Below are positions 51,722-58,889 of a stretch of 64,000 nucleotides of DNA, in pieces. Position numbers and translations under genes: made by a program. How positions within the stretch are numbered: position 1 is the stretch's first letter; each line of letters opens with the position of its first letter. The DNA lies in contig OMIN01000127.1 in the NCBI GenBank assembly GCA_900299145.1, positions 45,873 through 109,872 of the forward strand, written 5' to 3'. The notes beneath the pieces were generated by a model. That model searched no databases. It was not told where the DNA came from and was given only the letters and a program-made list of their open reading frames with translations. The DNA is from Betaproteobacteria bacterium. GTDB taxonomy: Bacteria; Pseudomonadota; Gammaproteobacteria; Burkholderiales; SG8-41.

Positions 51722-53272
51722 TCAAACGATTTCCGTGACCTCGGACTTGAAGCGCACGCGGTCAAAGTCCGGGCCCGATTCAACCAGCCCCGACGGCATT
51801 ACCATAAAGGTCTGCGCATCCACGGTGCGCGTCACTTCCAACGCATCGCGCAGGGTGAATGATTCCGGCCGCAGTAATATCTGCATGTAACCGCTGCGCG
51901 ACGGCTTCGGATCCAGCATCACCACGTTATGCGGCGCGCCACGTTCGCCGGCCGGACCACAGGTACACATGGTGCCCGGCAAAATCGCGCGGCTGATGAC
52001 CTGAATGCCGACCCGCCGCTGCCCGTGCACATCGGTCTCCACGCGGCGAACAATGCCCGCGCCCCATTGCGGATTTTCACTCTCCGGCAACAGCCCCAGC
52101 ACAACGCCCACCTGCAACCATTCACCGCGGCGTTCCGGCACGATCATGCCGTAGCCTTCGGCGCTTGCGTTTTCGACCACCCAGGTTTCCTGGAGTCCCG
52201 TCCCGGGAGCACTGGCCGTCGCATCGACACCACCCGCGGTCAGCACGCCATCAAAACCATGCAGTACTTGCAGCGTGGACGCCACCTTGCGCCGCTCGGA
52301 GTCGCGCGCCGGCAGGTCTTTGTCCCAATTAAACGCGAGATGCAGCAACGTGTCGGTCACTTCGTCATTGCGCGTGCCTGCATTCAGATTCAATTGAGAA
52401 GGCAGCACGCCGGTTTCTTCAATCGTTTCCAGCGCTTTTTGCACTTCATCCAGCGCCGGCCCGGCGCCGAAATGAAAAAGCCGCGCATCACGTGGCGGCT
52501 GCGCCAGCATGCGTGCCGGCGACATGCCGCCGTTCAGATCAAAAAAGAAATTACAGCCCGGCTGCGGCTCGGATGACGACACAAACGAACGCGAATAATG
52601 GGCAATCGCCCGCTCCGCGATATTCTGGCGCACCGGTGACAAACCGCCGGTGGAAGACACGCCGAGCATCAGCGTACGCAAAAACTCCTGCCGCACCGTG
52701 CCCTTGCCATAGGCTCCGCCATAGATATCCACCACCTCATCCGCATAGCCGCCGGACTGCGCCTTGTCGTAAAGTTGCGCGACGGTTGTCCAGTAACTGT
52801 CTCCCACGTAGCCGTATCGCATCAGGATCCACTTGATTTGCATCACCTGCGCGCGCATCGCTCGTGCCACCCATTGCGGCATGTGCTTTGCCAACGCCGC
52901 GCTTTTGGTCTGCTTGGGATCAGTTGTCCGCTCGATGCAGGCAAGATACGCGTTGCCCAGCGCCGTCCAGTAACTCATGGCCGCCCGTGACAGGAGCCCT
53001 TCCTGGAATTTCGCCTGTGGCTTGAGCGCCAGATACTGGTCGATCAGGCGCAAGCTGTGACGCTTCAATCCGGCGTCGATCTGATCGACAACATCGTAAC
53101 AATGCGCAACCGTGAATTCGGTTTCAGCCACCGCCGAGTCAAGCCACAGCACGGCGTCCTGCGTTGCGCGCACGGCATCTTCCGCCGGCAACGTGGCGAG
53201 CATTTCCTTGACGCTTGCGAGGTGCGCAGCCGCGTCGGCGTCCTTCGCCGCGCCTCCCAGCCATTTCAGCAT
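51722..53272 (-). CDS. Large hypothetical protein, paralogue 1, with PilZ-like C-terminal region
   Basis: A 516-residue protein without a signal or membrane helix. The first ~280 residues are helical with conserved blocks (MQIKWILMRYGYV and EFLRTLMLGVSSTGGLSP). The last 180 hold a beta-barrel-like stretch: VVENASAEGYGMIVPERRGEW and GAGIVRRVETDVHGQRRVGI, which resembles the D/N-x-S-x-x-G and RR of PilZ domains. A role in c-di-GMP sensing is a guess. The next gene is a clear paralogue (WVLMRYGVV, AASPSGLSPV), so the pair arose by duplication. Confidence 0.72.
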   Translation of the reverse strand: MLKWLGGAAKDADAAAHLASVKEMLATLPAEDAVRATQDAVLWLDSAVAETEFTVAHCYDVVDQIDAGLKRHSLRLIDQYLALKPQAKFQEGLLSRAAMSYWTALGNAYLACIERTTDPKQTKSAALAKHMPQWVARAMRAQVMQIKWILMRYGYVGDSYWTTVAQLYDKAQSGGYADEVVDIYGGAYGKGTVRQEFLRTLMLGVSSTGGLSPVRQNIAERAIAHYSRSFVSSSEPQPGCNFFFDLNGGMSPARMLAQPPRDARLFHFGAGPALDEVQKALETIEETGVLPSQLNLNAGTRNDEVTDTLLHLAFNWDKDLPARDSERRKVASTLQVLHGFDGVLTAGGVDATASAPGTGLQETWVVENASAEGYGMIVPERRGEWLQVGVVLGLLPESENPQWGAGIVRRVETDVHGQRRVGIQVISRAILPGTMCTCGPAGERGAPHNVVMLDPKPSRSGYMQILLRPESFTLRDALEVTRTVDAQTFMVMPSGLVESGPDFDRVRFKSEVTEIV

Positions 53273-53335: not shown

Positions 53336-54877
53336 TCACACCAGCGGTTCCACCAGCTTGTAGCGCAGCCAGTCAAAGTCGTATCCACTTTCGATCACGC
53401 CGCCCGGCTCCAGCACATGCGTGACCGCCGGCTTGCCGTACATGGCCTCGATCGGCTCCCGCCCCCCCAAGAGATCGTGGCGCGCCACGACATGCAGACT
53501 GCCGCTGGGCGAGGCGCGTGGACTGAGCAAAATGGCATGCTGGCGCTTGCTCCCCTGCTCCAGCCCCGAAATTGACCGTACATGCACCGATAGCGGCGAT
53601 TTTGATATCAGCTGAATGCCAATGCGGTGCTGGCGGTGTTCGTCACCCTTGACGCGGCGGATAATGCCAAGGCTCCACGCCGCATCCATCTCGCCGCGCA
53701 GCGCAAGTATCACGCCCACGCGCAGCCATTCTCCCTTGCCCGCCGGCACGATGACGCCATAGCCGCCAGCACTCACGTCCTCGGCCACCCACGAGTCGTA
53801 AGACAACGTATCGGAAAAATCCAGCCCTTCGCCGATGCCGGGCTCAATCGCCCCCAGCACATTCTGATAACCGTGCACCACGTGCAGCCGCATCGCCGTG
53901 CGCCGCCGCTCATGCGCGCGCGCGGGCATTTCCTTTGCCCAGTTAAACCCCAAGTGCTTCAGCACGCGCACTACCATCACGCCATCGGCGGCAGGCCCGC
54001 CAACACCCGGCGGCAATCGTCCCGTGGTACCTACCATCGCTGCCAGGGCCTGCACCGCGGGCCGCGCTTCATTGACGTCGAAGTAGCGCGTCATTTCCGT
54101 CACCGGGGTCGAGCGCATCAGCCTCAATGGCGGCCGCCCCCCCGCAAGGTCAAAGCAATAGTCACACCCTTCCCAGGGCTTACTGTCATAGCGGAACTTC
54201 GATGTGAATTGCGCAACCAGCCGCTCGGCGACATCCTGCTCTACGGGCGACAGTCCGCTGGGCGAGGCCGCCCACAGCATCATCGCACGCAAAAATTCGT
54301 AGCTTTGTGAACTGGTATCGGCGCTGTCCGGATAGAGCGCGATCTGCTTGTCGACCACGCCGGCCGCTTCGGCGAGCAAAGCACAGCGCGCGAACTCCTC
54401 CCACAACGCCGGACGCACCACGCCATAGCGCATCAGCACCCATTTCATCTGGTGACGCAGCGCACGCGTGGTGCGCGCCGCGATCACCGGCAGATGCGGC
54501 TTTACACTGCCCGGGACGTTCTTGATGTCTTTGGCCTGATCGACACATCCCAGATAGGCGCAGCCCAGATGCGTCCAGAAATCCGTCACCACCTTCCAGG
54601 TACGCTTTTCCTGAATGCGGTCTGTATCAGGCAACGTCACGTAGGTTTCAAGCAAACGCTCCTGCGCCTTGCGCGTCGCAATGTCGAGCATGCCCACGAG
54701 CTCGAACCGGCGGTCAAGCTTGAACCCTTCGGTTTCAGCAATGGAACCCAGCCAATAGCCCGATTCCTCCAGCATCTTCCACGGATCCTTGGGAAGCCCA
54801 TCGACGAACTTTTTCGAATCCTTGGGATCCGCCAGGGGGTGATCGACTTTCTCCCCCCCTTTCAGCCAGCTCAGCAT
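53336..54877 (-). CDS. Large hypothetical protein, paralogue 2, with PilZ-like C-terminal region
   Basis: A 513-residue protein and the duplicate of the gene at 51722, 63 bases away. Shared blocks include HQMKWVLMRYGVV, EFLRAMMLWAASPSGLSPV and GCDYCFDLAGG. The C-terminal SWVAEDVSAGGYGVIVPAGKG and LGIIRRVKGDEHRQHRIGI match the PilZ-like pattern (D-V-S-x-G-G and RR), better preserved than in paralogue 1. Start MLSWLKGG; the upstream stretch has a 7-bp hairpin at 54921-54940. Function unknown. Confidence 0.72.
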   Translation of the reverse strand: MLSWLKGGEKVDHPLADPKDSKKFVDGLPKDPWKMLEESGYWLGSIAETEGFKLDRRFELVGMLDIATRKAQERLLETYVTLPDTDRIQEKRTWKVVTDFWTHLGCAYLGCVDQAKDIKNVPGSVKPHLPVIAARTTRALRHQMKWVLMRYGVVRPALWEEFARCALLAEAAGVVDKQIALYPDSADTSSQSYEFLRAMMLWAASPSGLSPVEQDVAERLVAQFTSKFRYDSKPWEGCDYCFDLAGGRPPLRLMRSTPVTEMTRYFDVNEARPAVQALAAMVGTTGRLPPGVGGPAADGVMVVRVLKHLGFNWAKEMPARAHERRRTAMRLHVVHGYQNVLGAIEPGIGEGLDFSDTLSYDSWVAEDVSAGGYGVIVPAGKGEWLRVGVILALRGEMDAAWSLGIIRRVKGDEHRQHRIGIQLISKSPLSVHVRSISGLEQGSKRQHAILLSPRASPSGSLHVVARHDLLGGREPIEAMYGKPAVTHVLEPGGVIESGYDFDWLRYKLVEPLV

Positions 54878-55060: not shown

Positions 55061-55516
55061 TTATCGGGGCGCCTCCTGCTCCGGCCAATTCTTGATGTAG
55101 CGTTTTAGCAACCGGTTTTCAAAACTGGCTTCCTTGATCGCCGCCTTGGCAATGTCGTGAAACGAGATTACGCCCAGCAATCGCCCGCCTTCCACAACCG
55201 GCACGTAGCGAACATGCTGTTGCGTCATGCGATCGCGTACCGATTCGGAGGTGTCTTCCGGCGCGCATACCAGCGGATCATGCACCATCACCGCGCTCAC
55301 CGGCAGATCGCCCAGATTCCCATGCTGCGCATTCAGGCCGCGCAGCACCTCTCGAAACGTCAGCATGCCGGCCATGCTGGCGCTACCGGCGTTCATCACC
55401 ACCAGGGAGCCGATGTCGTTTTCCACCATGGTGGCCACCGCGTCTGCCAGCCGCCCCTGTGGCGCAATGCTGTAGATCGTGCCGCCCTTCAGATTCAAAA
55501 TATCTTTAATTATCAT
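55061..55516 (-). CDS. Two-CBS-domain protein
   Basis: From ATG 55516 the protein has 151 residues with two tandem CBS domains: TIYSIAPQGRLADAVATMVE with NDIGSLVVMN, and HDPLVCAPEDTSESVRDRM with RYVPVVEGGRLLGVISFHDI. It probably binds an adenosine nucleotide and regulates a partner protein. The start at 55567 is not conserved. It is divergent from the AhpD-like gene; the gap 55517-55717 holds no clear gene. Confidence 0.88.
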   Translation of the reverse strand: MIIKDILNLKGGTIYSIAPQGRLADAVATMVENDIGSLVVMNAGSASMAGMLTFREVLRGLNAQHGNLGDLPVSAVMVHDPLVCAPEDTSESVRDRMTQQHVRYVPVVEGGRLLGVISFHDIAKAAIKEASFENRLLKRYIKNWPEQEAPR

Positions 55517-55717
55517 GATCTTACAACTCCAGCGGCGTTGTGGTTGCAACCATATTAGCGCACCCATCCGGGCATGGAAAGGGCAGATACCACAAATGCC
55601 ACGAAAGCTATAATGGCCCGGCCACTCGCGCTAACGCGTGCTATTCCGCACTGGCTTGCGCTAGGCTGCAGTTCCCCGCACTTCTCCATACACACCCACG
55701 CAACCCGGACCCCCAAA

Positions 55718-56362
55718 ATGAGCCAACGCCTGCCTGGCATCACCGACGAAGCCGCCACCGGCCCCACCAAAGACCTTTTCGAAGCCAGCAATATCCTGCT
55801 CGGCCGCACCGCCAATCTGCAACGCATCCTGTCACACAGCCCGCTGGTGGCGCGCTGGTTCCTGCCGCTGGTGGCCGCCGTGCGCCAGCCTACCGCCGGC
55901 GCGGTGTCCGATGTTCGGCTGCGCAATCTGGCGTGCCTGAAGACATCGACCATCAACAACTGCAACTATTGAACGCAGCACAACAAAGTGCTTGGTCAAG
56001 CACTGGGACTCACCGACGCGGAATTCGAGGCGCTACAGGCGGACGACTATCTTGCCAGCCCGCTTTTCACCGCCAAGGAAAAAGCCGTGATGGCATGGTC
56101 GGCGGCCATGACACTGAACACCGCCAAGCATGACGACGCCGTGTGGGATGAGCTGCGCAAGCATTGCAACGAGGCCGAGATCGTCGAGGTGTCAATGATG
56201 TGCGGCTTGTTCAACATGATCAACCGGCTCAACGATTCTTTCCGCACCGAACTCGAGCCGGAGGAATACAACCGGCGTCAGCACAAGGCCGTCGGGGTCA
56301 CCGCGAAAGCGCTGGAAGACTATGCGTGCAAGATTTGTGAACGCGCGCGCAATGCGCCGTGA
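55718..56362 (+). CDS. AhpD/carboxymuconolactone-decarboxylase-like protein, candidate selenoprotein (in-frame TGA at a CxxC cysteine)
   Basis: The frame from ATG 55718 reads 84 codons, hits TGA at 55970-55972, and continues in the same frame for 129 codons to TGA 56360. The codon falls where the CxxC motif needs cysteine: NNCNY(TGA)TQHNKVLG, as in AhpD CxxC-xxxH. The downstream part (LTDAEFEALQ, AKEKAVMAWSAAM) keeps the CMD-fold pattern. A perfect hairpin with a GGTC loop follows the TGA. If read as selenocysteine the product has 214 residues with U85. If not, this would be a nonsense-mutated gene. Confidence 0.82.
55987..56004 (+). promoter_or_regulatory. Putative bacterial SECIS hairpin
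   Basis: AGTGCTT-GGTC-AAGCACT, a perfect 7-bp stem with a GGTC tetraloop. It begins 14 bases after the in-frame TGA at 55970-55972, and 21 bases separate the TGA from the loop. In E. coli fdhF the SelB-binding loop also reads GGUC and lies at a similar distance. The fdhF bulged U has no obvious counterpart here. Confidence 0.75.
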
Positions 56363-56426: not shown

Positions 56427-57443
56427 ATGAAAACAAATACTTACCGACAAGCCGTTTGGGTGGCCTTTCGGGTGGCCTTTCGGGCGGCCTTTTGTGTGGC
56501 CTTTACCGTCGCCAGCGCCGTCTGCGCCACAAATGCCGGCGCGGCCTATCCCGACCGCCCGATACGGCTGGTCATTTCCAGCGCGGTGGGCGGCTCGCCC
56601 GACATCGTCACGCGGGTGCTGGCGCTGGAGCTGGTCAAGCAAATGGGCCAGCAGATCGTCATCGACAACCGGCCCGGCGCCGCGCAAACCATCGGCACGG
56701 AAATGGTGGTGCGCGCCAACCCTGACGGCTACACCATCGGCTACGCCAACGTGGTGACGCTCGCCATTAACAAAACGCTGCTGCCCAAACAGCCTTATGA
56801 CCCGGACAAGGACTTGGCGCTCATCGGCCAGTTTCTGTCCACGCACAACCTGCTGGCCGTGCACCCGTCGCTGCCGGTGAAAAACGTGCGTGACCTCATC
56901 GACCACGCCAAGAGAAACCCCGGCAAGCTGCTGAATGCCTCTGGCGGCAACGGCACCACCGGCCATCTCGGCGGTGAATTGTTCAAGATCATGACCGGTA
57001 CGCAAATGGTGCATGTGCCTTACAAGGGCAGCCCGCAGGGCATTCAGGATTTGATTGCCGGGCAGGTGCAGGTGATGTTCGACAACCTGACGTCGATTTC
57101 GCCCAGTGTGAAATCCGGCAAGCTGCGCGGGCTGGGTGTCAGCGGGCCGAAACGCTCGCCGGTGTTCCCCGATCTGCCGACCATCGCTGAGGCGGGCGTG
57201 GCGGGTTACGTGACCACCGCGTGGGGTGGGCTCGTCGCGCCGCTCAACACGCCGCGCGACATCATCAACAAGTTGAATGCCGAGACCAACCGCGCGTTGC
57301 AGTCACCGCAGTTGAAAGAGCGCTATGCCGCCATTGACGCCGAGCCGGTGGGGGGCAGCGTGGCCGAGTTTGCGGCGTTCGTGAAGGCAGAGGCGGTGAA
57401 GTGGGGTGAGGTGGTGAAGAAGTCGGGCGCAAAACTGGATTGA
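56427..57443 (+). CDS. Bug/TctC-family periplasmic solute-binding protein
   Basis: A 338-residue protein. The start codon is followed by a copy of the dispersed word (MKTNTYRQ) and then by a 12-base tandem repeat in the signal sequence (VAFRVAFRAAFCVAF). The signal ends NAGAAYPDRPI. Cleft motifs: SSAVGGSPDIVTRVLAL and DNRPGAAQTIGTEMVV. It lies three bases before a D-aminoacylase, so the receptor and enzyme should be co-expressed; an N-acyl-amino-acid or related acid ligand is a fair guess. Confidence 0.92.
   Translation: MKTNTYRQAVWVAFRVAFRAAFCVAFTVASAVCATNAGAAYPDRPIRLVISSAVGGSPDIVTRVLALELVKQMGQQIVIDNRPGAAQTIGTEMVVRANPDGYTIGYANVVTLAINKTLLPKQPYDPDKDLALIGQFLSTHNLLAVHPSLPVKNVRDLIDHAKRNPGKLLNASGGNGTTGHLGGELFKIMTGTQMVHVPYKGSPQGIQDLIAGQVQVMFDNLTSISPSVKSGKLRGLGVSGPKRSPVFPDLPTIAEAGVAGYVTTAWGGLVAPLNTPRDIINKLNAETNRALQSPQLKERYAAIDAEPVGGSVAEFAAFVKAEAVKWGEVVKKSGAKLD
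56430..56443 (+). repeat. Dispersed 14-mer word, copy 15 (exact, in first codons)
   Basis: AAAACAAATACTTA directly after the ATG of the Bug gene, encoding KTNTY. Confidence 0.8.
56460..56507 (+). repeat. Four-copy 12-base tandem repeat in a signal peptide
   Basis: GTGGCCTTTCGG, GTGGCCTTTCGG, GCGGCCTTTTGT, GTGGCCTTTACC, coding for VAFR, VAFR, AAFC, VAFT. Twelve bases preserve the frame, so copy-number change would lengthen or shorten only the hydrophobic core of the signal. Confidence 0.85.
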
Positions 57444-57446
57444 ACC

Positions 57447-58889
57447 ATGAACAATAACTACGACCTGCTGATCCGCAACGCCACCGTTATCGACGGTACA
57501 CGCGCGCCGCGTTTCGAAGCCGACATCGCCGTGCGCGACGGCAAGATCGCTGACATTGGCAGTTTAAAAAATGCAGGCGCGGCGCAAGTCATCGACGCCG
57601 GTGGCTTGATCGCAGCCCCCGGTTTCATCGACGTGCACACGCACGACGACAGGCTGTTGTTTTCCGACCCGGCGATGACACCTAAGGCCAGCCAGGGTGT
57701 GACCACGGTAATTGCCGGCAACTGCGGCATCAGCCTCGCGCATTCGCCCAAGGATGGCCAAAAAACACCGCCGCTGGATTTGCTGGATGGCGACGGCGCA
57801 TGGTTTCGCTTTCCGTCGTTCGGCGCGTATCGCGAGGAGCTGGCTGCCAAACCGGCAGCGCTGAATGCCGCGTGCCTGGTGGGCCACACTACGTTTCGCG
57901 TGGCGACCATGGATCGTCTCGACCGTGCCGCCACGCCGGGCGAAATCGCCAAAATGCGTGAAATGGCGCGCGAATCGATGGCCTCCGGCGCGATTGGCGT
58001 GTCCACCGGCACGGCGTATCCGCCCGCCGCATCCGCGCCCACGGACGAGATTATCGAAGTGTGCCGCCCGGTGGGCGAATTCGGCGGGCTGTACGTCACG
58101 CACATGCGCAACGAAGACGACGCCGTACTCGATTCGATTGAGGAAACCTGCGCCATCGGCAAGGCGCTGAACGTGCCCGTGGTGATTTCGCATCACAAAA
58201 CCGTGGGCGTCAAAAACCACGGCCGCTCGACGGAAACGCTGGCGCTGATTGAAAAGAAAATGCGCGCGCAGCAGGTGTGCCTCGATTGCTACCCGTACAT
58301 CGCCTCCAGCACCGTGCTGCGTGACGACCGGCTCGCGCAATCCACGCGCATCATCGTCACGTGGTCAAAACCCCACCCGGAATTCTCCGGCGTTGATCTG
58401 GACGAAGTCGCACGGCGCCTCGGTGTGAGCCAGAAAGAAGCTGTGGAGAAAATCCGCCCGGCAGGCGCGATCTACTTCATGCTCGACGAAAAAGACGTGC
58501 AACGCATTTTGAGTTTCGACGAAACCATGATCGGCTCCGACGGCCTGCCGCACGACGCCAAACCGCATCCACGACTGTGGGGCACCTTCCCGCGCGTGCT
58601 CGGCCACTACGCGCGCGACCTGAAACTGTTTTCGCTGGAAACGGCGGTTTACAAAATGACGGGCTTCCCCGCGAAGCGCTTTGGTTTGTCAGGCCGTGGC
58701 GTGCTGCAGGCGGGCGCACATGCGGACATCACGTTGTTTGACCCGAACACGATTATCGATGCTGCTGATTTTAAAAACGGCAGCGCGCCTGCGAAGGGCG
58801 TTCACACGGTTATCGTCAATGGTGCGCCGGTGTGGGCTGGGGGCAAATCTACGGGGATACTGTCCGGGAGGTTGTTGACTCGAGGCTAA
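57447..58889 (+). CDS. N-acyl-D-amino-acid deacylase
   Basis: A 480-residue protein, without a signal. GFIDVHTHDDRLL is the metal HxH; VTTVIAGNCGIS carries the bridging cysteine, THMRNEDDAVLD and VVISHHKTVGVKN further ligands, and IGSDGLPHD the catalytic aspartate. These match D-aminoacylase from Alcaligenes. It releases D-amino acids from N-acylated forms in the cytoplasm. It follows a Bug gene by three bases. A second copy at 26888 lacks the cysteine and is exported. Confidence 0.92.
   Translation: MNNNYDLLIRNATVIDGTRAPRFEADIAVRDGKIADIGSLKNAGAAQVIDAGGLIAAPGFIDVHTHDDRLLFSDPAMTPKASQGVTTVIAGNCGISLAHSPKDGQKTPPLDLLDGDGAWFRFPSFGAYREELAAKPAALNAACLVGHTTFRVATMDRLDRAATPGEIAKMREMARESMASGAIGVSTGTAYPPAASAPTDEIIEVCRPVGEFGGLYVTHMRNEDDAVLDSIEETCAIGKALNVPVVISHHKTVGVKNHGRSTETLALIEKKMRAQQVCLDCYPYIASSTVLRDDRLAQSTRIIVTWSKPHPEFSGVDLDEVARRLGVSQKEAVEKIRPAGAIYFMLDEKDVQRILSFDETMIGSDGLPHDAKPHPRLWGTFPRVLGHYARDLKLFSLETAVYKMTGFPAKRFGLSGRGVLQAGAHADITLFDPNTIIDAADFKNGSAPAKGVHTVIVNGAPVWAGGKSTGILSGRLLTRG

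What the first reader, a model, noticed from the sequence alone, without database searches (positions are those of the whole stretch)
55718..56362. Candidate selenoprotein: AhpD-like CxxU
An in-frame TGA at 55970 lies exactly at the second cysteine of the AhpD-type CxxC-xxxH motif (NNCNY-TGA-TQHN). The frame stays open for 129 codons after it, with conserved CMD-fold patterns. AhpD-like CxxU selenoproteins are a known class in sequenced bacteria (from memory). A random nonsense mutation would rarely strike this one residue and also have the hairpin described next. The sel genes and tRNA-Sec are not in this window.
Basis: partly seen in the sequence, partly recalled or inferred. Interest (0 to 1): 0.93.

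Follow-up and report, generated by a model that had tools for sequence, protein, structure and literature searches.

The report
Selenium enzyme with conserved recoding hairpin
In this bacterial gene an in-frame stop codon, kept in every close relative examined together with an RNA hairpin, is very likely read as the rare amino acid selenocysteine, giving a predicted redox enzyme of a known type with an extra cysteine pair in its tail; the same genome holds at least 22 other candidate genes of this sort, far more than surveys report for this group of bacteria.

Summary
TGA 55970-55972 is codon 85 of a 214-codon frame (55718-56362, +), at the second Cys of a CxxC motif. The genome has SelA, SelB, SelD and tRNA-Sec. 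All 44 named close orthologues (64-93% identity) have TGA there, and selection is as purifying after the UGA as before it. Listed full-length database homologues (55-65%) have Cys. A 6-bp hairpin with a GGUC loop (55988-56003) fits the published bacterial SECIS model, is nearly frozen at synonymous sites and shows compensatory changes; none of 12 distant Cys loci keeps all six pairs. It is almost certainly a selenoprotein; mass spectrometry would prove it.
AhpD-like CxxU selenoproteins are known, but this clade is a distinct variant: below every curated cut-off, Asn at two AhpD relay positions, the CxY[U/C]xxH spacing of debrominase Bmp8, and a C-terminal CxxC (44/44 Sec forms; 1 of 176 listed Cys forms). 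Predicted role: selenol peroxide or disulfide reductase recharged through the tail dithiol. In 9 of 44 loci it follows a flavin monooxygenase and flavin reductase. The genome also has 19 UGSC selenoprotein candidates; its family has 2-44 UGSC matches per genome.

The parts
55718..56362 (+). Selenoprotein gene, AhpD-like/CMD fold, 214 residues with Sec85, stop TGA 56360-56362
   Evidence: Frame and translation; orthologues start and end at matching positions; median dN/dS 0.166 before and 0.142 after the UGA; predicted fold pLDDT 95
55961..55963 (+). Cys82 codon (TGC), first residue of the CxxU redox motif
   Evidence: Cys in 44/44 Sec orthologues and 17/17 sub-family B Sec proteins and in 119/120 listed database homologues, the other a fragment
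55970..55972 (+). UGA codon 85, inferred Sec
   Evidence: TGA in 44/44 named orthologues and in 21/21 orthologues of other family genomes (the two sets overlap); Cys in 119/120 listed database homologues
55979..55981 (+). His88, three residues after Sec (CxYUxxH)
   Evidence: His in 44/44 and 17/17 Sec proteins and 119/120 listed homologues; the debrominase Bmp8 has the same CxYCxxH spacing
55988..56003 (+). Bacterial SECIS hairpin GTGCTT-GGTC-AAGCAC (A55987-T56004 can add a seventh pair)
   Evidence: Synonymous codon homozygosity 0.957 vs 0.507; compensatory changes; fits the bSECIS constraints quoted; MFE -8.1 kcal/mol for 55986-56007
56327..56338 (+). C-terminal CxxC (Cys204-K-I-Cys207), inferred resolving or relay dithiol
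   Evidence: Y[AG]CxxC in 44/44 Sec orthologues; CxxC in 1 of 176 listed full-length Cys homologues

Best explanation
The UGA at 55970 is very likely decoded as selenocysteine, directed by the conserved hairpin right after it and by the genome's own SelA/SelB/SelD/tRNA-Sec, and the product is predicted to be a thiol-selenol redox enzyme of the AhpD-like (CMD) fold. Shown: conserved frame and UGA, Sec/Cys pairing, hairpin conservation with compensatory changes, the decoding genes, the conserved C-terminal CxxC. Inferred: Sec85 is the attacking group, Cys82 closes a selenenylsulfide with it, and the tail dithiol Cys204/Cys207 (or thioredoxin directly) reopens it, drawing electrons from the thioredoxin system. 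Most likely substrate class: peroxides or reactive by-products of flavin-dependent oxygenation and catabolism (about 0.45 for peroxide or disulfide reduction specifically).
Against: No selenium or mass-spectrometry evidence. In longer stretches the minimum-energy fold prefers another stem (of four Sec stretches of 51 nt folded only L045 shows the SECIS stem), although that other stem shows no covariation. No Rfam SECIS family hits. In one search two of the five measures (pairs with a two-sided change 298/500, further pair types 168/500) do not exceed the shuffles. In sub-family B only 5 of 17 keep all six pairs in register. Two of 12 Cys loci keep five of six pairs, and one has a 6-bp rule-conforming stem elsewhere. 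No curated family cut-off is reached. The substrate is untested. One Cys form, P0122, keeps the tail CxxC, so the tail does not strictly need Sec. No distance between tail and active site could be measured, and the model used Cys for Sec.
Confidence: 0.9

Rival explanations
1. A Cys codon has mutated or been misread to TGA and the gene is a pseudogene or an assembly error.
For: The named relatives are mostly metagenome bins, and one orthologue (L019/L051) has an additional in-frame TAG.
Against: The same TGA is in 44/44 named orthologues from many separate assemblies, with purifying selection downstream and a nearly frozen hairpin.
Confidence: 0.01
2. The UGA ends translation and the downstream part is made separately from an internal start, so two proteins are produced.
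For: The protein database holds such fragments of relatives (P0065, P0124 and P0152 begin at MLGQ, a few codons after the UGA).
Against: Cys homologues are single chains through this point; the CxxC/U helix would be cut inside the active site; the GTG read as that start is part of the hairpin stem, whose conservation and compensatory changes a start codon would not demand.
Confidence: 0.02
3. It is a selenoprotein, but its chemistry is reductive dehalogenation (or another halogen/quinone reduction) like the debrominase Bmp8, rather than peroxide or disulfide reduction.
Against: Only 17% identity to Bmp8; none of the neighbour families that I identified is halogen-specific; neighbours differ between lineages.
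Confidence: 0.15
4. It is a selenoprotein acting only as a general disulfide adaptor, as M. tuberculosis AhpD does for AhpC, and the tail CxxC is unrelated to catalysis (for instance metal binding).
For: The AhpD-like fold and adaptor role are known (abstract and passages of PMC3141380); CxxC pairs often bind metals (general knowledge).
Against: The relay residues are not conserved, and the tail is absent from sub-family B and from nearly all listed Cys forms.
Confidence: 0.25

Closest known systems
AhpD-like CxxU selenoproteins (COG2128/TIGR01926; 'AhpD-like 1'; passages of PMC1088965, PMC2398784, PMC13188914)
   Same: AhpD-like protein with CxxU, Sec at the second Cys, SECIS directly downstream, predicted there by Sec/Cys pairing.
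   Different: Scores 51.7 against the TIGR01926 cut-off of 81.8; CxYUTxHN with His at +3; conserved C-terminal CxxC. COG2128 itself was not searched.
NCBIfam NF053654 'YciW-related (seleno)protein' and NF041238 'AhpD_rel_CFYUT'
   Same: Curated (seleno)protein models that it hits; the matches span the CxxU helix.
   Different: 59.6 vs cut-off 310 and 36.8 vs cut-off 175: not members.
Bmp8 debrominase (PDB 6ohi, 6ohj)
   Different: Cys instead of Sec; 17% identity; the alignment stops at model residue 186, before the tail; substrate of the window protein unknown.
PA0269 / M. tuberculosis AhpD
   Different: Proton relay Glu and +4 His replaced by Asn in all 44 Sec orthologues.

Membership tests
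Bacterial selenoprotein gene | In-frame UGA with homologous, selected coding sequence on both sides | tested here: met
   dN/dS
Bacterial selenoprotein gene | UGA aligns with Cys in homologues (Sec/Cys pair) | tested here: met
   119 of 120 listed homologues Cys, 1 a fragment
Bacterial selenoprotein gene | bSECIS: 3-9 nt loop, 4-16 bp stem, G in the first two loop positions, 16-37 nt from UGA, MFE <= -7.5 kcal/mol (passages of PMC13188914) | tested here: met
   GGUC loop, 6-7 bp, 21 nt, -8.1 kcal/mol for the isolated hairpin; conservation. In longer stretches another stem is the minimum-energy fold
Bacterial selenoprotein gene | SelA, SelB, SelD, tRNA-Sec in the genome | tested here: met
Bacterial selenoprotein gene | Selenium in the protein | not testable with these tools
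   Needs 75Se labelling or mass spectrometry
AhpD-like / CMD superfamily | Fold and CxxC (CxxU) helix | tested here: met
AhpD-like / CMD superfamily | Curated thresholds: Pfam CMD 23 bits, TIGR01926 81.8 bits | tested here: not met
   21.2 and 51.7 bits
AhpD sensu stricto | Relay Glu and His at +4 of the second Cys (passages of PMC3141380) | tested here: not met
   Asn70 and Asn89 in 44/44; sub-family B keeps Glu in 11 of 17 but has Asn at +4 in 17/17
NF053654 YciW-related (seleno)protein | Score over 310 bits | tested here: not met
   59.6 bits
NF041238 AhpD_rel_CFYUT | Score over 175 bits | tested here: not met
   36.8 bits
Bmp8-type reductive debrominase | CxYCxxH motif on this fold (as seen in Bmp8; its catalytic role is recalled) | tested here: met
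   CxYUxxH here, CMYCKSH in Bmp8
Bmp8-type reductive debrominase | Reductive dehalogenation | not testable with these tools
   Needs an assay

The most novel reading that the evidence does not exclude
A selenocysteine version of the Bmp8-type reductive dehalogenase: an AhpD-fold enzyme that does deiodinase-like selenol chemistry on halogenated or quinone products of flavin monooxygenases, and carries its own reductant as a C-terminal CxxC dithiol, in a betaproteobacterial family whose selenoprotein count rivals or exceeds the published bacterial record.
Probability: 0.12. Interest if true: 0.87.

Novelty: new variant of a known kind. Interest (0 to 1): 0.62.

Why it matters
It shows a strongly constrained SECIS in a gene whose closest relatives turned up in the protein database only as fragments starting after the UGA, and a lineage in which Sec has been kept by a whole clade while Cys versions branch from within it. 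The tail CxxC, present in all 44 Sec forms and nearly absent from the listed Cys forms, makes a testable case of a second redox pair serving a selenol in a non-thioredoxin fold. The genome context matters more: 24 candidate selenoproteins in one genome, and 2-44 UGSC-family matches in all 36 genomes of its family searched, against one Sec family (FdhA) in the 2006 survey of Betaproteobacteria and a record of 39 genes in the 2022 review. That makes the unknown role of UGSC proteins approachable through comparative genomics.

Tried and rejected
Energy-based folding alone does not single out the hairpin; the alternative stem that it prefers was counted on the alignment and shows no covariation. 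Rfam gave no SECIS hit at gathering or relaxed threshold. Gene neighbourhood did not give one function: contexts differ by lineage. A search for Cys-form DNA in 398 genomes drawn from the phylum (E <= 1e-40) found only the window's own gene, and one with the window protein in 369 genomes drawn from the class (E <= 1e-60) likewise, so the hairpin control in Cys forms rests on 12 more distant Cys loci. L012, first listed as a TGA paralogue, was dropped: its TGA is its normal stop and it has no CxxC. A claim that tail and Sec are lost together in independent events was weakened: one search places P0002 apart from the main Cys clade, one search places it and P0122 at that clade's base (P0122 with weak support, 99/33, and a long branch), and P0122 keeps the tail. 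No paper on selenoprotein-rich Betaproteobacteria or on this C-terminal CxxC stood out in the listings (open-licence library only). The Bmp8 paper was not found; its mechanism is recalled.

Rows left out. One search used 33 sequences; one search repeats the count with all 54 distinct named Sec sequences plus the window (L045, is not in it). Of 77 loci, 4 gave no motif in my pattern (L114 is a Cys form; L116 and L124 are fragments without the region; L118 is partly N); the 73 others are 44 close Sec, 17 sub-family B Sec and 12 Cys. Ten distant Cys loci were left out of the tree; one search used 7 of the sub-family B rows. The trees used 26 and 28 of the database homologues. The 176 Cys homologues are all listed hits of two searches (capped at 120 each) that carry C-x-Y-C-x-x-H; the 3 left out are fragments that start after the UGA. 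The 21 family orthologues and the 44 named ones overlap: many are the same contigs.

Full report
WHAT IS THERE. The frame 55718-56362 (+) codes for 214 residues if TGA 55970-55972 is read as an amino acid; the stop is TGA 56360-56362. The motif is C82-N-Y-U85-T-Q-H88-N. Pfam CMD is hit at 21.2 bits (cut-off 23), TIGR01926 at 51.7 (81.8), NF053654 '(seleno)protein' at 59.6 (310) and NF041238 at 36.8 (175). It is therefore related to these families but below every curated threshold that it was held against.

DECODING MACHINERY. The window's own genome (99.69% complete, 5.5 Mb, 158 contigs) has SelA, SelB and tRNA-Sec on contig C110, in the order selA, selB, a thioredoxin-reductase-like gene with CADC (303 aa; 231 bits, below the TrxR cut-off of 343), tRNA-Sec. 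SelD is on C129 and itself has an in-frame TGA at GGG-U-GC. Over 60 genomes (the own one and 59 relatives), 25 hold a relative of the protein at E <= 1e-20; 23 of these have SelB over its cut-off and two have it in pieces or partial; among the other 35 genomes 16 have SelB over its cut-off (Fisher p 2.5e-4).

CONSERVATION OF THE UGA. One search gave the window gene itself (L011) and 21 orthologues in other genomes of its family (67-92% identity); in all 21 codon 85 is TGA. One further orthologue, in G016, lies in two pieces, the first with one TGA. The scan of named genome contigs gave 77 loci, many of them the same contigs. Of these, 44 are close orthologues (L049-L091 and L109, 64-93% identical), all with TGA; 17 are a more distant Sec sub-family B (C-x-Y-U-x-x-H-N); 12 have Cys; and 4 could not be read by my pattern. 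The titles of the close ones are mostly Betaproteobacteria or Burkholderiales metagenome bins; two are labelled Rokubacteria. Some bear labels such as Bordetella parapertussis or Chitinophaga pinensis that look wrong (inference). In the protein database, 119 of 120 listed homologues have Cys at both motif positions, and the last, P0065 (96% identical), is a fragment beginning just after the UGA. Median dN/dS is 0.166 for codons 3-84 and 0.142 for codons 86-186 (957 and 975 unsaturated of 990 pairs). A nonsense mutation or sequencing error is excluded.

THE SECIS HAIRPIN. GTGCTTGGTCAAGCAC (55988-56003) is identical in the window and the 21 family loci and in 42 of the 44 named orthologues (the other two are L086 and L087). 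Among well-conserved columns with 4- or 6-fold degenerate residues, codon homozygosity is 0.957 in the five hairpin columns and 0.507 in 51 others (permutation p 5e-6). L086 has a compensatory change (CTC-GGTC-GAG). On all 54 distinct named Sec sequences plus the window, 93.6% of the cells of the six pairs pair and 21 cells are changed on both sides (0 of 500 shuffles reach either value or the covariation score); the counts of pairs with a two-sided change (3) and of further pair types (8) do not exceed the shuffles; slid registers pair 20-54% (33-row version). Relatedness can inflate shuffle tests. By fixed register, all six pairs are kept in 43 of 44 close Sec loci, 5 of 17 sub-family B loci and 0 of 12 Cys loci, of which two keep five. 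Against: part of sub-family B has weaker or shifted hairpins, and one Cys locus (L113) has a 6-bp rule-conforming stem elsewhere; free energy of longer stretches is ordinary and prefers another stem, which however shows 72.7% pairing and no compensatory cell. The constraints of the published bSECIS model (passages of PMC13188914) are met: loop 4 nt, stem 6-7 bp, G in the first two loop positions, spacing 21 nt, -8.1 kcal/mol for 55986-56007. About 1.1% (21 of 1916) of TGA trinucleotides in the window have a rule-conforming stem of at least 7 bp.

THE TAIL. All 44 Sec orthologues end in Y-[AG]-C-x-x-C, Cys204/Cys207 in the window, inside the last predicted helix. Among 176 listed full-length Cys homologues from two searches, one (P0122) has CxxC there and two (P0002, P0020) have a single Cys. 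Sub-family B Sec proteins show no tail pair. In the trees the Cys forms nest within the Sec group, as if Sec came first and was replaced; the trees differ on where P0002 branches, many forks are weak, and the root is a midpoint. The series P0122 (Cys, tail kept), P0002 (Cys, half tail), remaining Cys forms (no tail pair) suggests that the tail decays after Sec is lost. A relay from tail to selenenylsulfide is my inference. A Cys homologue fused to a thioredoxin domain (P0159) points to thioredoxin as electron source.

NEIGHBOURS. In the window a CBS-domain gene (55061-55567, -) is divergent and a TctC receptor gene (56427-57443, +) and an amidohydrolase gene (57447-58889, +) follow. Elsewhere contexts vary. 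In 10 of 44 loci an HsaA/p-hydroxyphenylacetate-hydroxylase-like flavin monooxygenase lies upstream, in 9 with a flavin reductase directly before the Sec gene (25 nt gap in L062), and in 7 of these 9 a GFO/IDH/MocA gene follows directly; 8 of 44 have a PPDK/PEP-synthase-like gene upstream. This favours a role beside catabolic oxygenation, where peroxide or reactive products arise; it does not prove a substrate.

THE GENOME IS SELENOPROTEIN-RICH. A scan for NF041046 (UGSC family) finds 19 matches in this genome, each with one TGA; 4 of them are over the curated cut-off of 125 bits, the lowest scores 35 bits. All 19 TGAs lie at the U of UGxC (18) or UGSS (1), and 10 of 19 are followed by a 7-8 bp rule-type hairpin. 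Added to these are SelD (hairpin only 4 bp), the window gene, two AhpD-like paralogues (L013 CHYU, L016 CTGU, both with 7-bp hairpins) and a formate dehydrogenase match over its cut-off with one TGA whose exact position I did not inspect: 24 candidates. All 36 genomes of the family in the set have UGSC matches, 2-44 each (median 15, sum 531 at E <= 1e-10), and every row printed (the list is cut) has one TGA. A 2006 survey gives Betaproteobacteria one selenoprotein family, FdhA (passages of PMC1794560); the 2022 review gives 39 genes as the largest prokaryotic selenoproteome (passage of PMC9312934). Larger reports that I have not seen are possible. That the window's organism is a betaproteobacterium is inferred from its nearest named relatives.

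VERDICT. Genuine selenoprotein (Sec decoding about 0.97), of a known kind, AhpD-like CxxU, in print since PMC1088965 (passages); the clade is a distinct variant with a conserved C-terminal dithiol and a Bmp8-like motif. Its exact reaction is open.

Noticed in passing
own genome G000 (L129-L136, L145-L155); family genomes G000-G035: Large expansion of UGSC-family selenoprotein candidates: 19 in this genome, all with TGA at the motif U, and 2-44 matches in each of 36 family genomes.
   Followed up: partly
L002:13450-14361 (+): A thioredoxin-reductase-like flavoprotein (CADC motif) sits between selB and tRNA-Sec; possibly a reductant for selenoproteins.
   Followed up: partly
L013 (G000:C58:2741-3184) and L016 (G000:C7:10342-10869): Two further AhpD-like genes with TGA at the second motif Cys and a 7-bp SECIS-like hairpin each.
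   Followed up: partly
window 53336-54877 (-) and 51722-53272 (-): Two paralogous proteins of 513 and 516 aa without Pfam or NCBIfam hit, related to genes upstream of the orthologue in 11 other loci.
   Followed up: no
L019 / L051: One orthologue has an extra in-frame TAG besides the conserved TGA: pseudogene or assembly error.
   Followed up: no
L041, L045, L039: Sub-family B Sec genes whose frame runs on into what looks like a second AhpD-like domain (open frames of 469-753 aa).
   Followed up: no
L051, L055, L057, L059, L074, L084, L089, L090, L101 and others: Public metagenome bins holding orthologues or relatives are titled Bordetella parapertussis or Chitinophaga pinensis, which is probably mislabelling.
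   Followed up: no
P0159: A Cys homologue (Pseudorhodoplanes sp.) carries a C-terminal PF00085 thioredoxin domain.
   Followed up: no
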